From Verrucomicrobiota bacterium (lineage in GTDB: Bacteria > Verrucomicrobiota > Verrucomicrobiia > Opitutales > Opitutaceae), in the NCBI GenBank assembly GCA_019136515.1, contig JAGVUB010000025.1, positions 1-64,000 of the forward strand: a stretch of DNA of 64,000 nucleotides, given 5' to 3'. The position numbers and the translations under genes were made by a program. Below are positions 50,231 through 56,534 of the stretch, in pieces. Each line of letters opens with the position of its first letter. Positions within the stretch are counted from its first letter, which is position 1. The notes beneath the pieces are model-generated. The model saw only the letters and a program-made list of their open reading frames with translations. It was not told the origin of the DNA and did no database searches.

Positions 50231-50548
50231 TTACTTCTTCTTCTTGGCGGCCTTCTTGGAGACCGGGAGAGCATCAATCGCGGTGCGGAGCAGCTCGCCG
50301 ACGCTCACGTCGTGCTTCTTGGCCAGCTTCACGAGACGCTGCTTGCTGTCCATGCGGAGGCGGACGGAGATCTGGCGATGCGCCTTCACCGGGGCGGAGT
50401 AGGAACCGAAGTCGAACGTCTCGATCGCGTGGCGGATCACCTCGCTGTTGGTGGCCATGTCGAGGCTGCTGCGGGCAGCTTCGATCTTGGCGAGGAGCTC
50501 TTCCTTGAGATCGAACGTGAGGGGGGAACTTTCCTGGGAGGCGGGCAT
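50231..50548 (-). CDS. protein with two tandem ribbon-helix-helix domains
   Basis: A 105-aa probable DNA-binding protein. Two similar halves each show a beta strand followed by two helices: residues of about 9-46 (LTFDLKEELLAKIEAARSSL, then TNSEVIRHAIETFDF) and about 58-94 (RQISVRLRMDSKQRLVKLAK, then DVSVGELLRTAIDAL). The C-terminus is lysine-rich (SKKAAKKKK). Single ribbon-helix-helix proteins dimerise; here one chain contains both halves. Such proteins are usually repressors or nucleoid-associated. It stands alone between terminators, with 240 bp of gene-free, comparatively AT-rich sequence upstream, which suits its own promoter and self-regulation. Start at 50548 (MPASQESSPLTFDLKEE). Confidence 0.8.
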   Translation of the reverse strand: MPASQESSPLTFDLKEELLAKIEAARSSLDMATNSEVIRHAIETFDFGSYSAPVKAHRQISVRLRMDSKQRLVKLAKKHDVSVGELLRTAIDALPVSKKAAKKKK

Positions 50549-50788: not shown

Positions 50789-51151
50789 TCAAAGCGCCAG
50801 CAACAATCCGCCGACCAGCACCAGACCGCCGAGAACGGCCGCGAGCGGCCAGAACCACCGCATCCACGGCGGGCGGGCCTGCCAGAGCTCGATCGCCGCC
50901 ACCATGCGCCGGGCGTAGGCGTGGCCGGGCTCGCGTTCGAGCAGCAGCCGCCACAGCGGCAACGCGGTGCGGTACTCGCCCGCGCCGGTGGCGAGCGCGG
51001 CGAGCGCCTGCAACAGCACCGGGTCGGCGGGCGGCAGACCGCCGGGGGCGACGACCGCCATCGCCTCCCGCAACCGGCCGCGCCGCGCCAGTTGTTGCGC
51101 CTGCAGCAGGCGCAACGACGTGTCCAGGGATTCGAGTCCGGGATCGGCCAT
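50789..51151 (-). CDS. small TPR-like membrane protein of the Hsp70 module
   Basis: A 120-aa protein. Residues of about 5-85 form helical pairs resembling tetratricopeptide repeats (SLRLLQAQQLARRGRLREAM; PVLLQALAALATGAGEYRTA; LPLWRLLLEREPGHAYARRM). The C-terminus is one membrane segment, WFWPLAAVLGGLVLVGGLLL, ending in the last residues, so it looks tail-anchored with the TPR part in the cytoplasm. It lies 9 bp after the divergent Hsp70 gene, in the same direction, and probably serves as membrane docking site or co-chaperone for that Hsp70. I know no named family. Confidence 0.75.
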   Translation of the reverse strand: MADPGLESLDTSLRLLQAQQLARRGRLREAMAVVAPGGLPPADPVLLQALAALATGAGEYRTALPLWRLLLEREPGHAYARRMVAAIELWQARPPWMRWFWPLAAVLGGLVLVGGLLLAL

Positions 51152-51160
51152 GGCGCACGC

Positions 51161-53656
51161 TCAGCCCAGGATGCCCGAGCCGTAACCGCGCTGGACTTCG
51201 CCCAGCACCTGTTGCGGCAGCAAATCCTGGAGACTGAAGACCACTTCCTTGAGCGCGGGGGTGTTGCCCTGCGCCACGGCCTCGCGGCCCTGGCGGATGA
51301 GCTCCTCGGCCCGCGCGGCATCACTCATCTGCGGCTGGCAGGCGACGAGGCTCTCGAAGTGCGTGACCCAGAAGGCGGCCTGGCGGAAGAGGATCGCCGA
51401 GGACACGTCCTCGATCTCGGCCTTCTTGGTGCGCAGGCGGGTGGCGTTCTTCTCGCCGATCAGGGCGGCAACCTGCTCGCGCAGGGTGCGGGAACGGGCC
51501 TTCTCCTCGTTGGTGCCGTTCTGGAACGCGAGGGTGTCGAGCTCGGTGAGCTTCACGTCGACCTCCTTGACCAGCGAAGGCCAGGTGGCGCGGTCCTCGA
51601 CCTCGTCGAGGCGGATCTTCCACTCGAGGATCTCGCGCTCGACGCGCAGCAGGGCGTCGAACTCGGCCTTCTCGTGGTTGAGGATGGCGTCGATCTCCTG
51701 GGTGGCGGCGGAGGTCTCGTGCTCCTGGAGCGCCTTCTGCACCGCCTGGTCCTCGGCGAGGTGCGGGTTCTCCTTGAGGCCGGTGAGGCGCTTGCGCTCG
51801 CGGGCCCACTCGGCGCGCAGCATGCCGACATCGGGCTGGCGCACCTTGCCGCCGAGCTCGATCTTGGTGGGGAACTCCTCGTCGAGCAGCGGCACGTAGG
51901 CGACCACCTTGAGCATGCGCGAGGAATCCATGGCGAAGGTGACCTCGATCTCGCAGCCGGCGGGGATGTCGCGTTTGACCTTCTCGGCGGTGATCTCGAG
52001 CGAGCCGATGAGGATGTTGCGGTCGGCAAGGTCGCGGTTGCCCTCAACGATCGGGATACGCAGCACGCTGCCGGACTCGCCGGCGCGCACGCCGACGGCG
52101 GTGCGGTAGGTGCGGGTGCTCTTGGCGGGCAGGCCCTGGCCCTTGTTGAAGTGGATGCCGATGCGGTTGTCGGCCATCGCGACGCCGACGTTGTTGATGA
52201 TCGGCTGCTCGTCGACGACGACGCCCATCGTGTAGGCGAACTCGCCCGGATCGGTCTCGCAGATGTTGCCGGTTGGGTCGCGCAGTTCGAGGGTGAAGAC
52301 GTTCTGGATGCCCGGCTCGGCGCGGACGTTGAGCTGGAAGGCGGCACTCTCGTTGAGGGTGATCTTGCCGCTGCGCCATTTCGTCTGCTGGTTGGCAAAC
52401 TCGAGGGTGTAGCCGACAACCGAGCCGCCGGCGGGCAGCGAAAACCGGCCGCCCACGAGCGGGTCCGGCTCGGAGCCGACGGGCTTGTAGATGAGCTCGA
52501 CGTTGAAACGATTGGCGCGGGCCGGGGCCTTCACGGCCGCCGGCGTGCCGGCGAGGCGCTGCGTGCCGGCGAAGACGGCCGCACCGCGCGCGACGACCGT
52601 GAGCGGATCGACATTGAAATCGAACGGGATGCCGAGGCGCTGTTTGACGATGGCGCGGAAATACGGGGCAAGCGTGGGGCCGCCCACGAAGATGAGGCGC
52701 TCGACGGCGGCGGGGCCGAGGTCGCGCTCGGTGAGCACACGCTGGGTGATCGTCACGGCCTTGTTGATGATCGGCGTGGCGGCGCGGGTGATGTCCTGCC
52801 GGGTGAGCTCGGTCTCGAAGGTGACGGTCTCGCCGGAGACGTTGCGCAGCGTGGCCTCCACGAGCGTGGCCTCCCGGCGGGAGAGGTCGATCTTCGCGGT
52901 TTCGGCAGCGGCCTTCAGGCGGGCCAAGTCGTAGCGGTAGCGTTCGACGCCGCGGCGGAAATCGGCCGCACCGAACTCCTTGGCCACGCGCGGGGCGAGC
53001 ACCTGCTCGACGATGGCCCAGTCGATGTCGGAGCCGCCGAGGAAGTTGTCGCCGCCGTGGTTGACGACGCTCATGGTGCCGTCCTCGGAGCGGATGAGGG
53101 CGGCATCGAACGTGCCGCCACCGAAGTCGAAGACCATCCAGTACGCCTTGGCCTCGACGCGCTGGAATCCGTAGGCGAGCGCGGCGGCGACGGGCTCCTG
53201 CAACAGAAGCGCGGTGCGGAAACCGGCGAGTTCGGCGGCGCGTTTGGTCGCCTCGCACTGGTGGAGCTCGAAGGCGGCCGGCACGGTGATGACGGCGGCG
53301 GAGATCTGCTCGTTGCGCTTCTGGGCAACGTCGCCGCGCAGCGATTTCAGCACCTCGGCGGAGAGATCCTCGGGGCGCATGCGCCGACCGCTGGCGCGGA
53401 AGGCGTACTCGTAGCCCGTGCCCATGCGGCGCTTGAACTCGAGGTGCAGGTCGCCCTCGGCGCGCTCGTCGCCGACCTTGGCGCGGGCACTGTGGCCGAC
53501 CCACAGGTTGCCGTTGCGATTGATGTAGACGGCCGAGGGGGTGATGTCGGCCTCGAGGTTGTTCTTGATGATCTCGGTGCCCGTGCCGGAGACGACCGCG
53601 ATGGCGCTGTTGGTCGTGCCGAGATCGATGCCGAAGTCGATGGTGTTTCTGCTCAC
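51161..53656 (-). CDS. divergent Hsp70 (DnaK-like) chaperone
   Basis: An 831-aa Hsp70, longer than the usual 610-640 of DnaK. The ATPase domain is intact: FGIDLGTTNSAIAVVSG at residues 7-23, LLLQEPVAAALAYGF, WMVFDFGGGTFDAALI, FLGGSDIDWAIVEQ and RLIFVGGPTLAPYFRAIV. After it comes a section of about 130 residues not seen in DnaK (RFNVELIYKPVGSEPDPLVG to FTLELRDPTGNICE), likely beta-rich. Then comes a substrate-binding type beta domain (VGVAMADNRIGIHFNKGQ, GLPAKSTRTYRTA, GCEIEVTFAMDSSRMLKVVA) and a long helical C-terminus ending GSGILG without the EEVD-like tail. I chose the GTG at 53656 because it overlaps the stop of the GrpE-like gene (GTGA, 53653-53656). It is not the housekeeping dnaK. Confidence 0.9.
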   Translation of the reverse strand: MSRNTIDFGIDLGTTNSAIAVVSGTGTEIIKNNLEADITPSAVYINRNGNLWVGHSARAKVGDERAEGDLHLEFKRRMGTGYEYAFRASGRRMRPEDLSAEVLKSLRGDVAQKRNEQISAAVITVPAAFELHQCEATKRAAELAGFRTALLLQEPVAAALAYGFQRVEAKAYWMVFDFGGGTFDAALIRSEDGTMSVVNHGGDNFLGGSDIDWAIVEQVLAPRVAKEFGAADFRRGVERYRYDLARLKAAAETAKIDLSRREATLVEATLRNVSGETVTFETELTRQDITRAATPIINKAVTITQRVLTERDLGPAAVERLIFVGGPTLAPYFRAIVKQRLGIPFDFNVDPLTVVARGAAVFAGTQRLAGTPAAVKAPARANRFNVELIYKPVGSEPDPLVGGRFSLPAGGSVVGYTLEFANQQTKWRSGKITLNESAAFQLNVRAEPGIQNVFTLELRDPTGNICETDPGEFAYTMGVVVDEQPIINNVGVAMADNRIGIHFNKGQGLPAKSTRTYRTAVGVRAGESGSVLRIPIVEGNRDLADRNILIGSLEITAEKVKRDIPAGCEIEVTFAMDSSRMLKVVAYVPLLDEEFPTKIELGGKVRQPDVGMLRAEWARERKRLTGLKENPHLAEDQAVQKALQEHETSAATQEIDAILNHEKAEFDALLRVEREILEWKIRLDEVEDRATWPSLVKEVDVKLTELDTLAFQNGTNEEKARSRTLREQVAALIGEKNATRLRTKKAEIEDVSSAILFRQAAFWVTHFESLVACQPQMSDAARAEELIRQGREAVAQGNTPALKEVVFSLQDLLPQQVLGEVQRGYGSGILG

Positions 53657-54198
53657 GATTGTTTGGACGGGGTTGGGGGTATGCCGACGATGACCTCGCC
53701 CACCTGCAGGAGGCGATCCTGCCAGAAGATGGCAGGGCGCACGGCCTCGACGACCGTGTCGCGGACGAGATCGGGGGTGGGCTCGAAGGAAAGGACTTTG
53801 AGCGGCAGGCCGGAGTCGTAGGGTTGGCCGATCCAATCGCTCAGGCGCACGCCCATCGTGGTGAAGGCCTCCAGGGCGCCTTCGATATGGCGATACAGGC
53901 GGCGCGTCTCCTCGCGGGGCTCGCCGGTCTTCGGGTCGAGCATCCGGGCCTGCGCGCGCCAGATATGGGTGGCGAGGGCAGCCAGGGGCCCATCGAGCGG
54001 ATTGGTGCGGTCGGCCGGCACGGTCGGACCAGTGGCCTCCGCGGGCGCGATCGGCGCGGGCGGGACGGCGGCGGGCGGCGGGCTGTGGCGGAGCGCCTCG
54101 ACCTCGGCGAGAGCCTTCTCCAAAGGAGCCTCGGGCAGGCGGGCCAGTTTCCTGGGCTCGTTCGCCATCAGCAGTTGCAGCATGCCGGGGTCGTTCAT
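53653..54198 (-). CDS. GrpE-like protein of the divergent Hsp70 module
   Basis: A 181-aa cytoplasmic protein. The N-terminal third is helix and a proline-rich linker (RHSPPPAAVPPAPIAPAEAT). Residues of about 75-115 form helices (LATHIWRAQARMLDPKTGEP, YRHIEGALEAFTTMGVRL). The last 60 residues (IGQPYDSGLPLKVLSFEPTP, VEAVRPAIFWQDRLLQVGEV) resemble the small beta domain of GrpE, in which paired strands contact Hsp70. Similarity is weak, so the call leans on position: its start and stop both overlap neighbours by four bases (ATGA at 54195-54198 and GTGA at 53653-53656). It therefore probably is the nucleotide exchange factor of this Hsp70. Confidence 0.62.
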   Translation of the reverse strand: MNDPGMLQLLMANEPRKLARLPEAPLEKALAEVEALRHSPPPAAVPPAPIAPAEATGPTVPADRTNPLDGPLAALATHIWRAQARMLDPKTGEPREETRRLYRHIEGALEAFTTMGVRLSDWIGQPYDSGLPLKVLSFEPTPDLVRDTVVEAVRPAIFWQDRLLQVGEVIVGIPPTPSKQS

Positions 54199-56534
54199 GA
54201 TTCGTCGGTGGATGGGGTGACGGAAGCGAGGGCGTCGATCACGTGGCCCGCGATGGCCGCGTTCCAGACCTCCGCCAGCGCAAAACGTTCGGTGTCGTCT
54301 TCATTCTCGGCCCGGAGGACCACGAATTCGCCGTCGTCGAGCGCATGCGCGAGTTGCGAGTAAGGCACGGCGGCGCCGCTTGGCCAGTGGAAAGTCCGGC
54401 CGGAGAATACAAGCCCGTCGGCGCGCAGCCACGCGGACCCGAGCGGCACCGCCTCGCCGCGCCGGACCCAGTCGACCAGCCGTACGATCAGGCCGGGCAC
54501 GACCACGCCGTAGAGCGTCTCCAGAATCAGGTTGTAGAGGCGCGCGGGATCCGCGGCGGCGGCGCCGAACAGATTGGTCTCGTCGAGCGTCACCACCGTC
54601 TCGGCGCTGCACCAGGCGATCCGGTGCCAGCGCACGCCCGTCGGTCCCTCGTCCCCGGCCGCAACCACGCCGTACCGCAGACCGGTGATATCGTCCGGGT
54701 TGATGTTAACTCCGTCGAAGACCAGGCGCGTCGGGTCGAGGTCGAGCACATGGCCCCCCACCTCGAAATGAAGCTGGTTGCTTCCGAAGGCGCTCAACGG
54801 CGTGCCTGCCGTCGGGAGTTCCGCCACCGGCTCGGGCGCGGCGACATTCCCCTCGGACCCCGCGGGTTCCGGGGCCGCCGGCGCGGGCTCGGTCCACAGC
54901 GGCAGCTCGCTCTGCAGCGGCGCCGGCTCTTTCGCCGGGGCGGGCGGCTCGCTGGCCACCGGCGTCTCGTTCTCCGTCGGCACGACGGCCTCGGCGAGCG
55001 CGGCCGCCTCGGCCGCCGCGGTGGCATGCTCGGCGGCCATCTCCCGGGCCTTGCGGCGCACGATCTCCAGCAACAGCTGCTCGCGCTCCCGATGGAGCGC
55101 CGCGCGCTCGGCGCCGTCCGAGATGTCGGCCGCGGTGGCGAGGGCACGAGCGGCGAGGTCGAAGTTCTCCAACTGGTAGCAGGCGGCGTGGGCGAGTTCG
55201 CGCAGGGCGCGGCGCACGTTCGCCATGTAGTCGGTCCGGGCCCGCGGTCCGAGGTTGAGCCGGTCGGCGCCGGGCACGAACTCCTCGAGCAACAGCCGGT
55301 ATGCCGCCTCGAACTCCGCCGCCTCGGCGAGCGCAGGATCGGCGTTGGGATCGGCCGGCGGCAGCTTCTCGACGATCGCGTTGCCGTGCAGGATGTCCGC
55401 CGTCTCCTCGAGCCGGCGACGCACCTCCGGGGTGGCCGCAAGCGTGGTCAGGTGAGTCAGCCAAGGGAGCACCCCGCAGCTGTCGAGCGTACGGCGCTGG
55501 TAGGCGATGATACCCTCCAACGCGGCATCGACCACGCGGGTGCTGATCTCGCGGTACACTTCGGAATCGCGCCCGCAGATGGCCTCGATCACCGCAAACT
55601 CGTCCGCCGCCTCGGCCAGCAGGCCAGCCGTGAGCGCGAGGCCGACCGAGCCGTCGCCGGTGAGACGCCGCGCCGTGTCGCGCACCAGCAGGTCGACTCC
55701 CTGCACGACGCGAACGATCGCCGCCTCGAGCGTACGCTCGGCCCGCGCGGGCACATCGTGCACCTGGCGGGCGAAACGCACATGCGCGGTGGACTCATGC
55801 CACTGCGCCTTCTGCGCGCGGTTGATCGCCAACGCGGCGTGAATCGCGCAGAGCGCATCGGGCAAAGTGGCGCGGACCCCCTCCGCGAGGCCGGCGGGCA
55901 GGCGGGCGTCGTCCAAACGATTGATACGCAGCTGGAACCGATCCCAGAACTCCTCGCTCGCCCGTACCCGCGCCCATTGGGTGATCGAGGTGTTCCACCA
56001 TTCGGCGGTCGCCTCCTCGATCGGCGCGCCGGTGCGCTCGACCGAGAGCGCGGCCAGCTGGTGGAAGACCGCGAGGTTGTGCACGGCCACGATGTTTCCC
56101 GCGGCGGCCTCGTTCTGCCAGCGCAGGAACGCGGAGTCGGCATCGCCCGCGAGCAGCGCGTCGATCGCCGCGTCGCTGCCGTCCTCCGGGTAGTTGCTCG
56201 GCCAGAACCAGAAGAACTCGTGGAGCAGGCGGGTGAGCGTGTCCTTGAGCTGCTGGGCCGCGTCGCGCAACTGCTCGCTGCCCGGGGGCGGCTGGGGCGC
56301 GAAGGCCCAGCCGAACTCGGGTGCCCCCAGTTCCACCGAGAGTCGCAGCTGCTCGAGCCGGCGCTGGATCTCCCGGGCTCCGGCCAGCGAGGACAGACCG
56401 AGCCGCCGGAACGGTGGGCACGAGTCGATCAGCTCCTTGGCGACGGCCACGAACGGCGGCCACGGGACCGGCAGCGCCTGCGGTTCGGGCCCGGCCGGGG
56501 TATCCCCCTCGGGAGCAAAGACGTCATCGGGCAT
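54195..56534 (-). CDS. large J-domain-like protein of the Hsp70 module
   Basis: A 779-aa cytoplasmic protein. Near residues 40-110 it shows a J-domain-like pattern (PPFRRLGLSSLAGAREIQRR, then LSVELGAPEFGWAFAP and LTRLLHEFFWFWPSN) but I see no HPD motif, which J proteins use to stimulate Hsp70 ATPase. The middle (WQNEAAAGNIVAVHNLAVFH; LEDTA-like helices to residue 500) is helical repeat sequence, then comes an alanine/proline linker of about 70 residues, and a C-terminal domain of about 190 residues (LHFEVGGHVLDLDPTRLVFD; SAWLRADGLVFSGRTFHWPS) which is beta-rich. It is the first gene of the operon and its stop overlaps the GrpE-like start. It probably recruits substrate to the divergent Hsp70. 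Confidence 0.68.
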   Translation of the reverse strand: MPDDVFAPEGDTPAGPEPQALPVPWPPFVAVAKELIDSCPPFRRLGLSSLAGAREIQRRLEQLRLSVELGAPEFGWAFAPQPPPGSEQLRDAAQQLKDTLTRLLHEFFWFWPSNYPEDGSDAAIDALLAGDADSAFLRWQNEAAAGNIVAVHNLAVFHQLAALSVERTGAPIEEATAEWWNTSITQWARVRASEEFWDRFQLRINRLDDARLPAGLAEGVRATLPDALCAIHAALAINRAQKAQWHESTAHVRFARQVHDVPARAERTLEAAIVRVVQGVDLLVRDTARRLTGDGSVGLALTAGLLAEAADEFAVIEAICGRDSEVYREISTRVVDAALEGIIAYQRRTLDSCGVLPWLTHLTTLAATPEVRRRLEETADILHGNAIVEKLPPADPNADPALAEAAEFEAAYRLLLEEFVPGADRLNLGPRARTDYMANVRRALRELAHAACYQLENFDLAARALATAADISDGAERAALHREREQLLLEIVRRKAREMAAEHATAAAEAAALAEAVVPTENETPVASEPPAPAKEPAPLQSELPLWTEPAPAAPEPAGSEGNVAAPEPVAELPTAGTPLSAFGSNQLHFEVGGHVLDLDPTRLVFDGVNINPDDITGLRYGVVAAGDEGPTGVRWHRIAWCSAETVVTLDETNLFGAAAADPARLYNLILETLYGVVVPGLIVRLVDWVRRGEAVPLGSAWLRADGLVFSGRTFHWPSGAAVPYSQLAHALDDGEFVVLRAENEDDTERFALAEVWNAAIAGHVIDALASVTPSTDES

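What the first reader, a model, noticed from the sequence alone, without database searches (positions are those of the whole stretch)
50789..56534. Self-contained divergent Hsp70 module with coupled genes
Seen: J-like, GrpE-like and Hsp70 genes overlap by four bases each, then a TPR membrane protein after 9 bp. The Hsp70 has an extra domain of about 130 residues and no EEVD-like tail, and the J-like protein has no visible HPD. Inferred: a dedicated chaperone machine for a special client, perhaps at the membrane through the TPR protein.
Basis: partly seen in the sequence, partly recalled or inferred. Interest (0 to 1): 0.6.

Follow-up and report, generated by a model that had tools for sequence, protein, structure and literature searches.

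The report
Hsp70 operon lacking its J-protein trigger
A bacterium carries, next to its normal heat-shock chaperone set, a second four-gene chaperone kit in which the contact by which helper J-proteins normally fire the Hsp70 motor is missing on both partners, and relatives of the kit elsewhere carry membrane anchors and sit on plasmids beside anti-virus genes; what it acts on is unknown.

Summary
On the minus strand lie J-like (779 aa), GrpE-like (181 aa), Hsp70 (831 aa) and TPR/one-TM (120 aa) genes, with 4-bp, 4-bp overlaps and a 9-bp gap. All four are under purifying selection. J-like, GrpE-like and Hsp70 occur together in the same 5 of 289 sampled genomes of the phylum; divergent versions occur in 2 more genomes and on plasmids of Pseudomonadota and Bacteroidota. 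Profile comparison supports both weak calls: the GrpE-like protein carries the GrpE beta domain (hhalign 93.6%), and the J-like N-terminus is a J domain (88.8%) with no HPD in 17 of 17 copies. In 17 of 17 Hsp70s the HPD acceptor site is also lost (R167, Q378, N170), and an extra ~107-residue segment separates NBD and SBD, while catalytic residues and the GrpE-signature loop are kept. Best reading: a divergent Hsp70 machine with its own exchange factor and a pseudo-J scaffold, fired by something other than HPD, usually membrane-tethered. Plasmid relatives lie beside Gabija, Zorya, BREX and a Tn7-like element, so phage defence is a live rival.

The parts
54195..56534 (-). J-like protein, 779 aa: HPD-less J-like domain (about residues 41-107), helical solenoid (122-516), low-complexity linker (517-586), C-terminal beta domain (588-770, PH-like by motif, inferred)
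   Evidence: no Pfam hit
53653..54198 (-). GrpE-like protein, 181 aa; C-terminal beta domain of GrpE at residues 109-172
   Evidence: weak Pfam GrpE, E 0.35; hhalign 93.6%, E 2e-7; profile finds canonical GrpEs next
51161..53656 (-). Divergent Hsp70, 831 aa, GTG start: NBD 1-364, extra segment about 365-475 (predicted 7-strand beta sandwich 383-477), SBD-beta about 485-600, long helical lid 610-821, tail RGYGSGILG
50789..51151 (-). TPR protein with one C-terminal hydrophobic segment (about residues 103-120), 120 aa
   Evidence: hydropathy 2.46; homologs downstream of Hsp70 in L020-L024, L088-L090; L128
56622..56987 (-). HIT-domain gene 87 bp upstream on the same strand, linked in near relatives only; probably not part of the machine

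Best explanation
The operon encodes a second, self-contained Hsp70 machine, separate from the cell's DnaK/DnaJ/GrpE. Shown from sequence: the Hsp70 keeps the ATPase residues, an SBD-beta and a GrpE-signature loop of normal length, and it travels with a protein carrying the GrpE beta domain; its J-binding site and the direct NBD-SBD linker are lost, and its J partner lacks HPD. Inferred: the GrpE-like protein resets the nucleotide as GrpE does. The J-like protein acts as scaffold and client adaptor (pseudo-J domain, helical solenoid, C-terminal beta domain) rather than as an HPD trigger, and ATP hydrolysis is coupled to client binding through a different contact, perhaps involving the inserted beta domain. 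The assembly is held at the cytoplasmic face of the membrane, here by the TPR/TM protein, in relatives by a helix in the J-like or GrpE-like subunit. It would remodel or hold an envelope-linked or otherwise specialised client; the client is unknown.
For: Operon geometry. Strict co-occurrence of J, G and H in the same 5 of 289 genomes. T homologs downstream of Hsp70 in L020-L024, L088, L089, L090 and L128. GrpE beta domain: hhalign 93.6%, E 2e-7, against best shuffled score 21.1 vs 50.9; the GrpE-like profile's next hits in genomes fall in canonical GrpEs. J fold: hhalign 88.8%, E 2.5e-6 (shuffles of the narrower alignment at most 15.0 vs 25.9); AF2 helices 41-45, 53-68, 86-97, 99-107. Loss of acceptor: R167 0/17, N170 to Q 17/17, Q378 to F/Y 17/17, E217 0/17, E206 to R/K 14/17; all DnaKs, HscA and HscC keep R167, N170 and Q378; K70, P143, E171, D194, T199 and D201 kept 17/17; GrpE-signature region 26-31 aa vs 27 in DnaK, 17 in HscA, 23 in HscC. 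These DnaK residues are the HPD contacts (PMC8215388). Membrane helices in different subunits.
Against: No biochemistry. The client is unknown and no neighbour is conserved beyond close relatives. Membrane helices rest on hydropathy only. The AF2 Hsp70 model is of moderate quality (pLDDT 67.7, SBD-beta below 50) and no complex was modelled. A linker-like hydrophobic/acidic stretch (VVVDEQP, VVIEEQP) remains between insert and SBD-beta, so linker function may be moved rather than lost. L026 has no T gene. A designed HPD-less J domain can be active (cited in PMC13254874), so absence of HPD alone does not prove an inert J domain.
Confidence: 0.5

Rival explanations
1. The family is a conflict (anti-phage or plasmid-competition) module: an ATP-driven Hsp70 switch at the membrane that senses or remodels invader components. 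The Opitutaceae operon is a chromosomal member of it.
For: Plasmid relatives lie beside BREX and SIR2 (Haliscomenobacter), Zorya ZorA and GajB (Polaromonas), complete GajA/GajB and a type IIG restriction enzyme (Sinorhizobium), GajA/GajB-like genes (Aminobacter), and in a Tn7-like element after TnsD/TnsE (Shewanella). Patchy presence, 5 of 289 genomes. Hsp70 plus GrpE themes occur in proposed conflict systems (PMC7159879).
Against: No defence gene was seen next to the window copy; its neighbours are sugar kinase, aminotransferase, HIT and NrdR genes. No PADLOC family matches the four proteins apart from an E=0.0076 hit. Plasmids are rich in defence genes anyway and no background rate was measured. 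The plasmid branch differs (extra AAA ATPase, shorter GrpE-like protein, no T).
Confidence: 0.28
2. An ordinary Hsp70 system: the genome's true J proteins (three J domains elsewhere) fire this Hsp70, and the J-like protein is only an adaptor.
For: The genome encodes HPD-type J domains; Hsp70s can share J proteins.
Against: The residues that receive HPD (R167, Q378) and helix II (E206, E217) are lost or charge-reversed in every member, whereas the specialised HscA and HscC keep R167 and Q378.
Confidence: 0.12
3. Not a chaperone: the Hsp70 works as a nucleotide-controlled assembly switch or scaffold with no peptide-folding activity.
For: Loss of the J trigger and a domain inserted between NBD and SBD.
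Against: SBD-beta and a helical lid are retained and recognisable; the tail profile finds DnaK SBDs in most genomes.
Confidence: 0.1

Closest known systems
DnaK/DnaJ/GrpE machine
   Same: Hsp70 NBD with all catalytic residues, SBD-beta, a protein with the GrpE beta domain, a J-fold domain
   Different: No HPD; R167, N170, Q378, E217 lost; ~107-residue insert between NBD and SBD; different C-terminal tail; all parts in one operon with a TPR/TM protein
HscC with DjlB/DjlC, and HscA with HscB (specialised bacterial Hsp70s)
   Same: Specialised Hsp70 with dedicated partner proteins
   Different: HscA and HscC keep the J-binding residues and have a shortened GrpE loop and no exchange factor; here the reverse
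Pam16-type pseudo-J domains (HPD replaced)
   Same: J fold without HPD, membrane-associated Hsp70 setting (PMC13254874)
   Different: Pam16 pairs with an active J protein, Pam18; no HPD protein is encoded in this operon
Hsp70/GrpE theme in GAP1-N2 GTPase-centred conflict systems (Kaur et al. 2020, PMC7159879)
   Same: Dedicated Hsp70 plus GrpE plus TPR or DnaJ-fused proteins in one neighbourhood
   Different: No GTPase or FNIII-repeat protein found in this operon

Membership tests
Hsp70 superfamily | Actin-like NBD with catalytic K70, E171, D194, T199, D201 | tested here: met
   17/17 conserved; Pfam HSP70 E 1.1e-69
Hsp70 superfamily | SBD-beta and helical lid | tested here: met
   DnaK SBD aligned from tail-profile position about 121; helices 610-821 in the AF2 model
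DnaK/HscA/HscC-type Hsp70 | J-domain acceptor residues R167, N170, Q378 | tested here: not met
   0/17 in the family; present in 18/18 DnaKs, in HscA and in HscC
DnaK/HscA/HscC-type Hsp70 | Short hydrophobic linker joining NBD directly to SBD | tested here: not met
   125-137 residues instead of 24; no LLLD after the NBD; a linker-like stretch remains before SBD-beta in near relatives
DnaK/HscA/HscC-type Hsp70 | Groups with DnaK, HscA and HscC in an NBD tree | tested here: not met
   Those three form a clade at 99/99 without the family; long branches noted, and the family's own monophyly is not resolved
J-domain proteins | Four-helix J fold | tested here: met
   hhalign 88.8%, E 2.5e-6 with diverse members; AF2 helix order.
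J-domain proteins | HPD motif between helices II and III | tested here: not met
   0/17 at that position
GrpE | C-terminal beta domain | tested here: met
   hhalign 93.6%, E 2e-7, beats 150 shuffles; Pfam gathering cut-off not reached
GrpE | Long N-terminal helical dimerisation domain | tested here: inconclusive
   Profile alignment covers only 63 C-terminal columns; Haliscomenobacter and L127 homologs have coiled coils
Known anti-phage systems in PADLOC | Match to a PADLOC family | tested here: not met
   No significant match for the four proteins, nor for the plasmid Hsp70s of Pseudomonas and Shewanella
GAP1-N2 GTPase-centred systems | Adjacent GTPase and FNIII-repeat protein | tested here: not met
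   Neighbours are HIT, HTH_62-like and RHH proteins

The most novel reading that the evidence does not exclude
A wide family of Hsp70 machines, on chromosomes and plasmids of at least three phyla, that abandoned the HPD/R167 trigger and the direct NBD-SBD linker and evolved another way to couple ATP hydrolysis to clients at the membrane; its plasmid branch is an undescribed phage-defence system.
Probability: 0.25. Interest if true: 0.85.

Novelty: new variant of a known kind. Interest (0 to 1): 0.62.

Why it matters
The HPD contact with Hsp70 is treated as near-universal: even conservative changes abolish activity in every system tested (PMC8215388). A family in which both halves of that contact are gone, while the ATPase and an exchange factor are kept, makes it directly testable whether an Hsp70 can be driven another way. 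The link to defence genes on plasmids would, if real, connect Hsp70 machines to bacterial immunity.

Tried and rejected
Pfam, NCBIfam and PDB sequence searches on the J-like protein gave nothing. Viral-contig scans with the J-like and GrpE-like profiles found no relative. A tblastn of the J-like protein on plasmids found nothing. Single-sequence Pfam GrpE hit (E 0.35) alone was judged too weak and replaced by profile-profile tests with shuffled controls. The high hydropathy peak in the window J-like protein (residues 669-687) lies in predicted helices of its C-terminal domain and was not counted as a membrane helix. Literature searches found no description of this operon; bioRxiv and most subscription journals are not held.

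Full report
Observation. The four genes lie on the minus strand exactly as described: J-like 56534-54195, GrpE-like 54198-53653, Hsp70 53656-51161, TPR/TM 51151-50789, with overlaps of 4 and 4 bp and a gap of 9 bp. The same genome has a canonical DnaK, GrpE and DnaJ elsewhere, so this is an additional set. All four genes are under purifying selection against the 92%-identical (Hsp70) ortholog in an Opitutaceae MAG, L020: Ka/Ks 0.30, 0.20, 0.14, 0.25 for J, G, H, T.

Co-occurrence. In 289 genomes drawn from the phylum, strong matches to the J-like profile, the GrpE-like profile and the Hsp70 tail profile fall in the same five genomes, G000, G140, G143, G154 and G288. Two more genomes (G194, G105) carry divergent versions. 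The TPR/TM gene follows the Hsp70 in L020-L024, L088, L089, L090 and L128. No gene outside the module is conserved beside it except HIT in close relatives.

GrpE-like protein. Pfam gives only E=0.35. Profile-profile comparison with 33 canonical GrpE sequences taken from genomes of the phylum gives 93.6%, E 2e-7 over the C-terminal beta domain; the best of 150 column-shuffled controls scored 21.1 against 50.9. In genomes without the operon, the next hits of the GrpE-like profile fall at positions 104-175, and where I could compare places (G020, G001) they overlap the canonical GrpE.

J-like protein. The first 110 residues align with true J domains over the whole domain: 46.8% with near relatives and 88.8%, E 2.5e-6 when distant members are added. 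Column shuffles of the near-relative alignment reached at most 15.0 against 25.9. AlphaFold2 (6 sequences, mean pLDDT 75.6) places helices at 41-45, 53-68, 86-97 and 99-107, the J-domain order, followed by a helical solenoid 122-516 and a beta domain 588-752. The HPD position carries no HPD in any of 17 sequences. The C-terminal domain is PH-like by motif only (inference).

Hsp70. Catalytic residues K70, P143, E171, D194, T199 and D201 are conserved in 17/17. The residues that bind the J domain in the DnaK-DnaJ structure (R167 and Q378 for HPD Asp, E206 and E217 for helix II; PMC8215388) are lost: R167 0/17, Q378 to F/Y 17/17, N170 to Q 17/17, E217 0/17, E206 to R/K in 14/17. E. coli HscA and HscC keep R167, N170, Q378 and E217. 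Between NBD and SBD there are 125-137 residues instead of 24. The tail profile finds DnaK SBDs in most genomes but only from about its position 121 onward, so the first part is an insertion. In the AF2 model (pLDDT 67.7) the insert is seven strands, 383-477, an Ig- or FN3-like sandwich by inference. A hydrophobic/acidic VVVDEQP or VVIEEQP stretch remains just before SBD-beta in near relatives, so part of the linker may be preserved at a new place. The region holding the GrpE-signature loop is of DnaK length (26-31 against 27; HscA 17, HscC 23). So ATPase and exchange-factor features are kept while both halves of the HPD contact are gone.

Membrane link. T has one hydrophobic C-terminal segment. 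In distant members the helix sits elsewhere: in the J-like protein of L090, L026, L012 and L129, and probably in Aminobacter L029, where the J-like protein also carries peptidoglycan-binding domains; and in the GrpE-like protein of Haliscomenobacter L130 and of L127. On a Pseudomonas plasmid one chain carries TPR repeats, a J-like stretch and the same C-terminal domain. These rest on hydropathy, not on a dedicated predictor.

Distant members and defence. Relatives on plasmids lie beside BREX/SIR2 (L130), Zorya and GajB (L138), GajA/GajB and a type IIG enzyme (L139), GajA/GajB-like genes (L029), and within a Tn7-like element (L136). Several have an AAA ATPase directly after the Hsp70 (L129, L130, L136-L138). 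No background rate was computed. The window copy itself lies among housekeeping genes.

Mechanism. Shown: gene content, co-occurrence, conserved ATPase, GrpE beta domain, lost HPD interface, insert. Inferred: NEF action, pseudo-J scaffold role, alternative coupling, membrane tethering in cells. The client is unknown.

Novelty. I found no description of this operon in the papers held. The nearest published idea is the Hsp70/GrpE theme in GTPase-centred conflict systems (PMC7159879), which lacks these parts. It is rated a new variant of a known kind, because every core part belongs to a known superfamily.

Noticed in passing
G000 contig C4 (L091:7546-9606, L013): A second J-like paralog (32% identical overall) stands alone, with no Hsp70 or GrpE-like gene found beside it; suggests one Hsp70 served by more than one J-like adaptor. 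G154 also has two tandem J-like genes.
   Followed up: partly
L088:2117-4107: In G140 the J-like gene is split into two overlapping reading frames (395 and 334 aa): real frameshift or sequence error.
   Followed up: no
L129:2838-4211, L130:13699-15513, L136:9414-10850, L137:9417-10769: An AAA ATPase follows the Hsp70 directly in divergent members; in Haliscomenobacter it is fused to a protein kinase-like region and followed by a TerB-like gene.
   Followed up: no
L025:2562-3758: Downstream of a family Hsp70 lies a 398-aa protein whose C-terminal half looks like a formylglycine-generating-enzyme/sulfatase-modifying domain (by eye, not searched).
   Followed up: no
Hsp70 C-termini, window 51161-51190 and L020-L024, L088, L089: Conserved tail R-G-Y-G-S-x-(I/L), unlike the acidic DnaK tail; a possible docking peptide for the TPR protein or the J-like solenoid.
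   Followed up: partly
G013, G021, G027: A second, long GrpE-domain protein (267-363 aa open frame, E about 1e-11) in genomes that also have normal GrpE.
   Followed up: no
G000:C1:12248-12571 (L003): A third, very divergent Hsp70-like protein (451 aa open frame) in the same genome.
   Followed up: no
window 50231-50548: Ribbon-helix-helix protein downstream of the TPR gene; no homolog found in L020-L026, so probably unrelated.
   Followed up: partly
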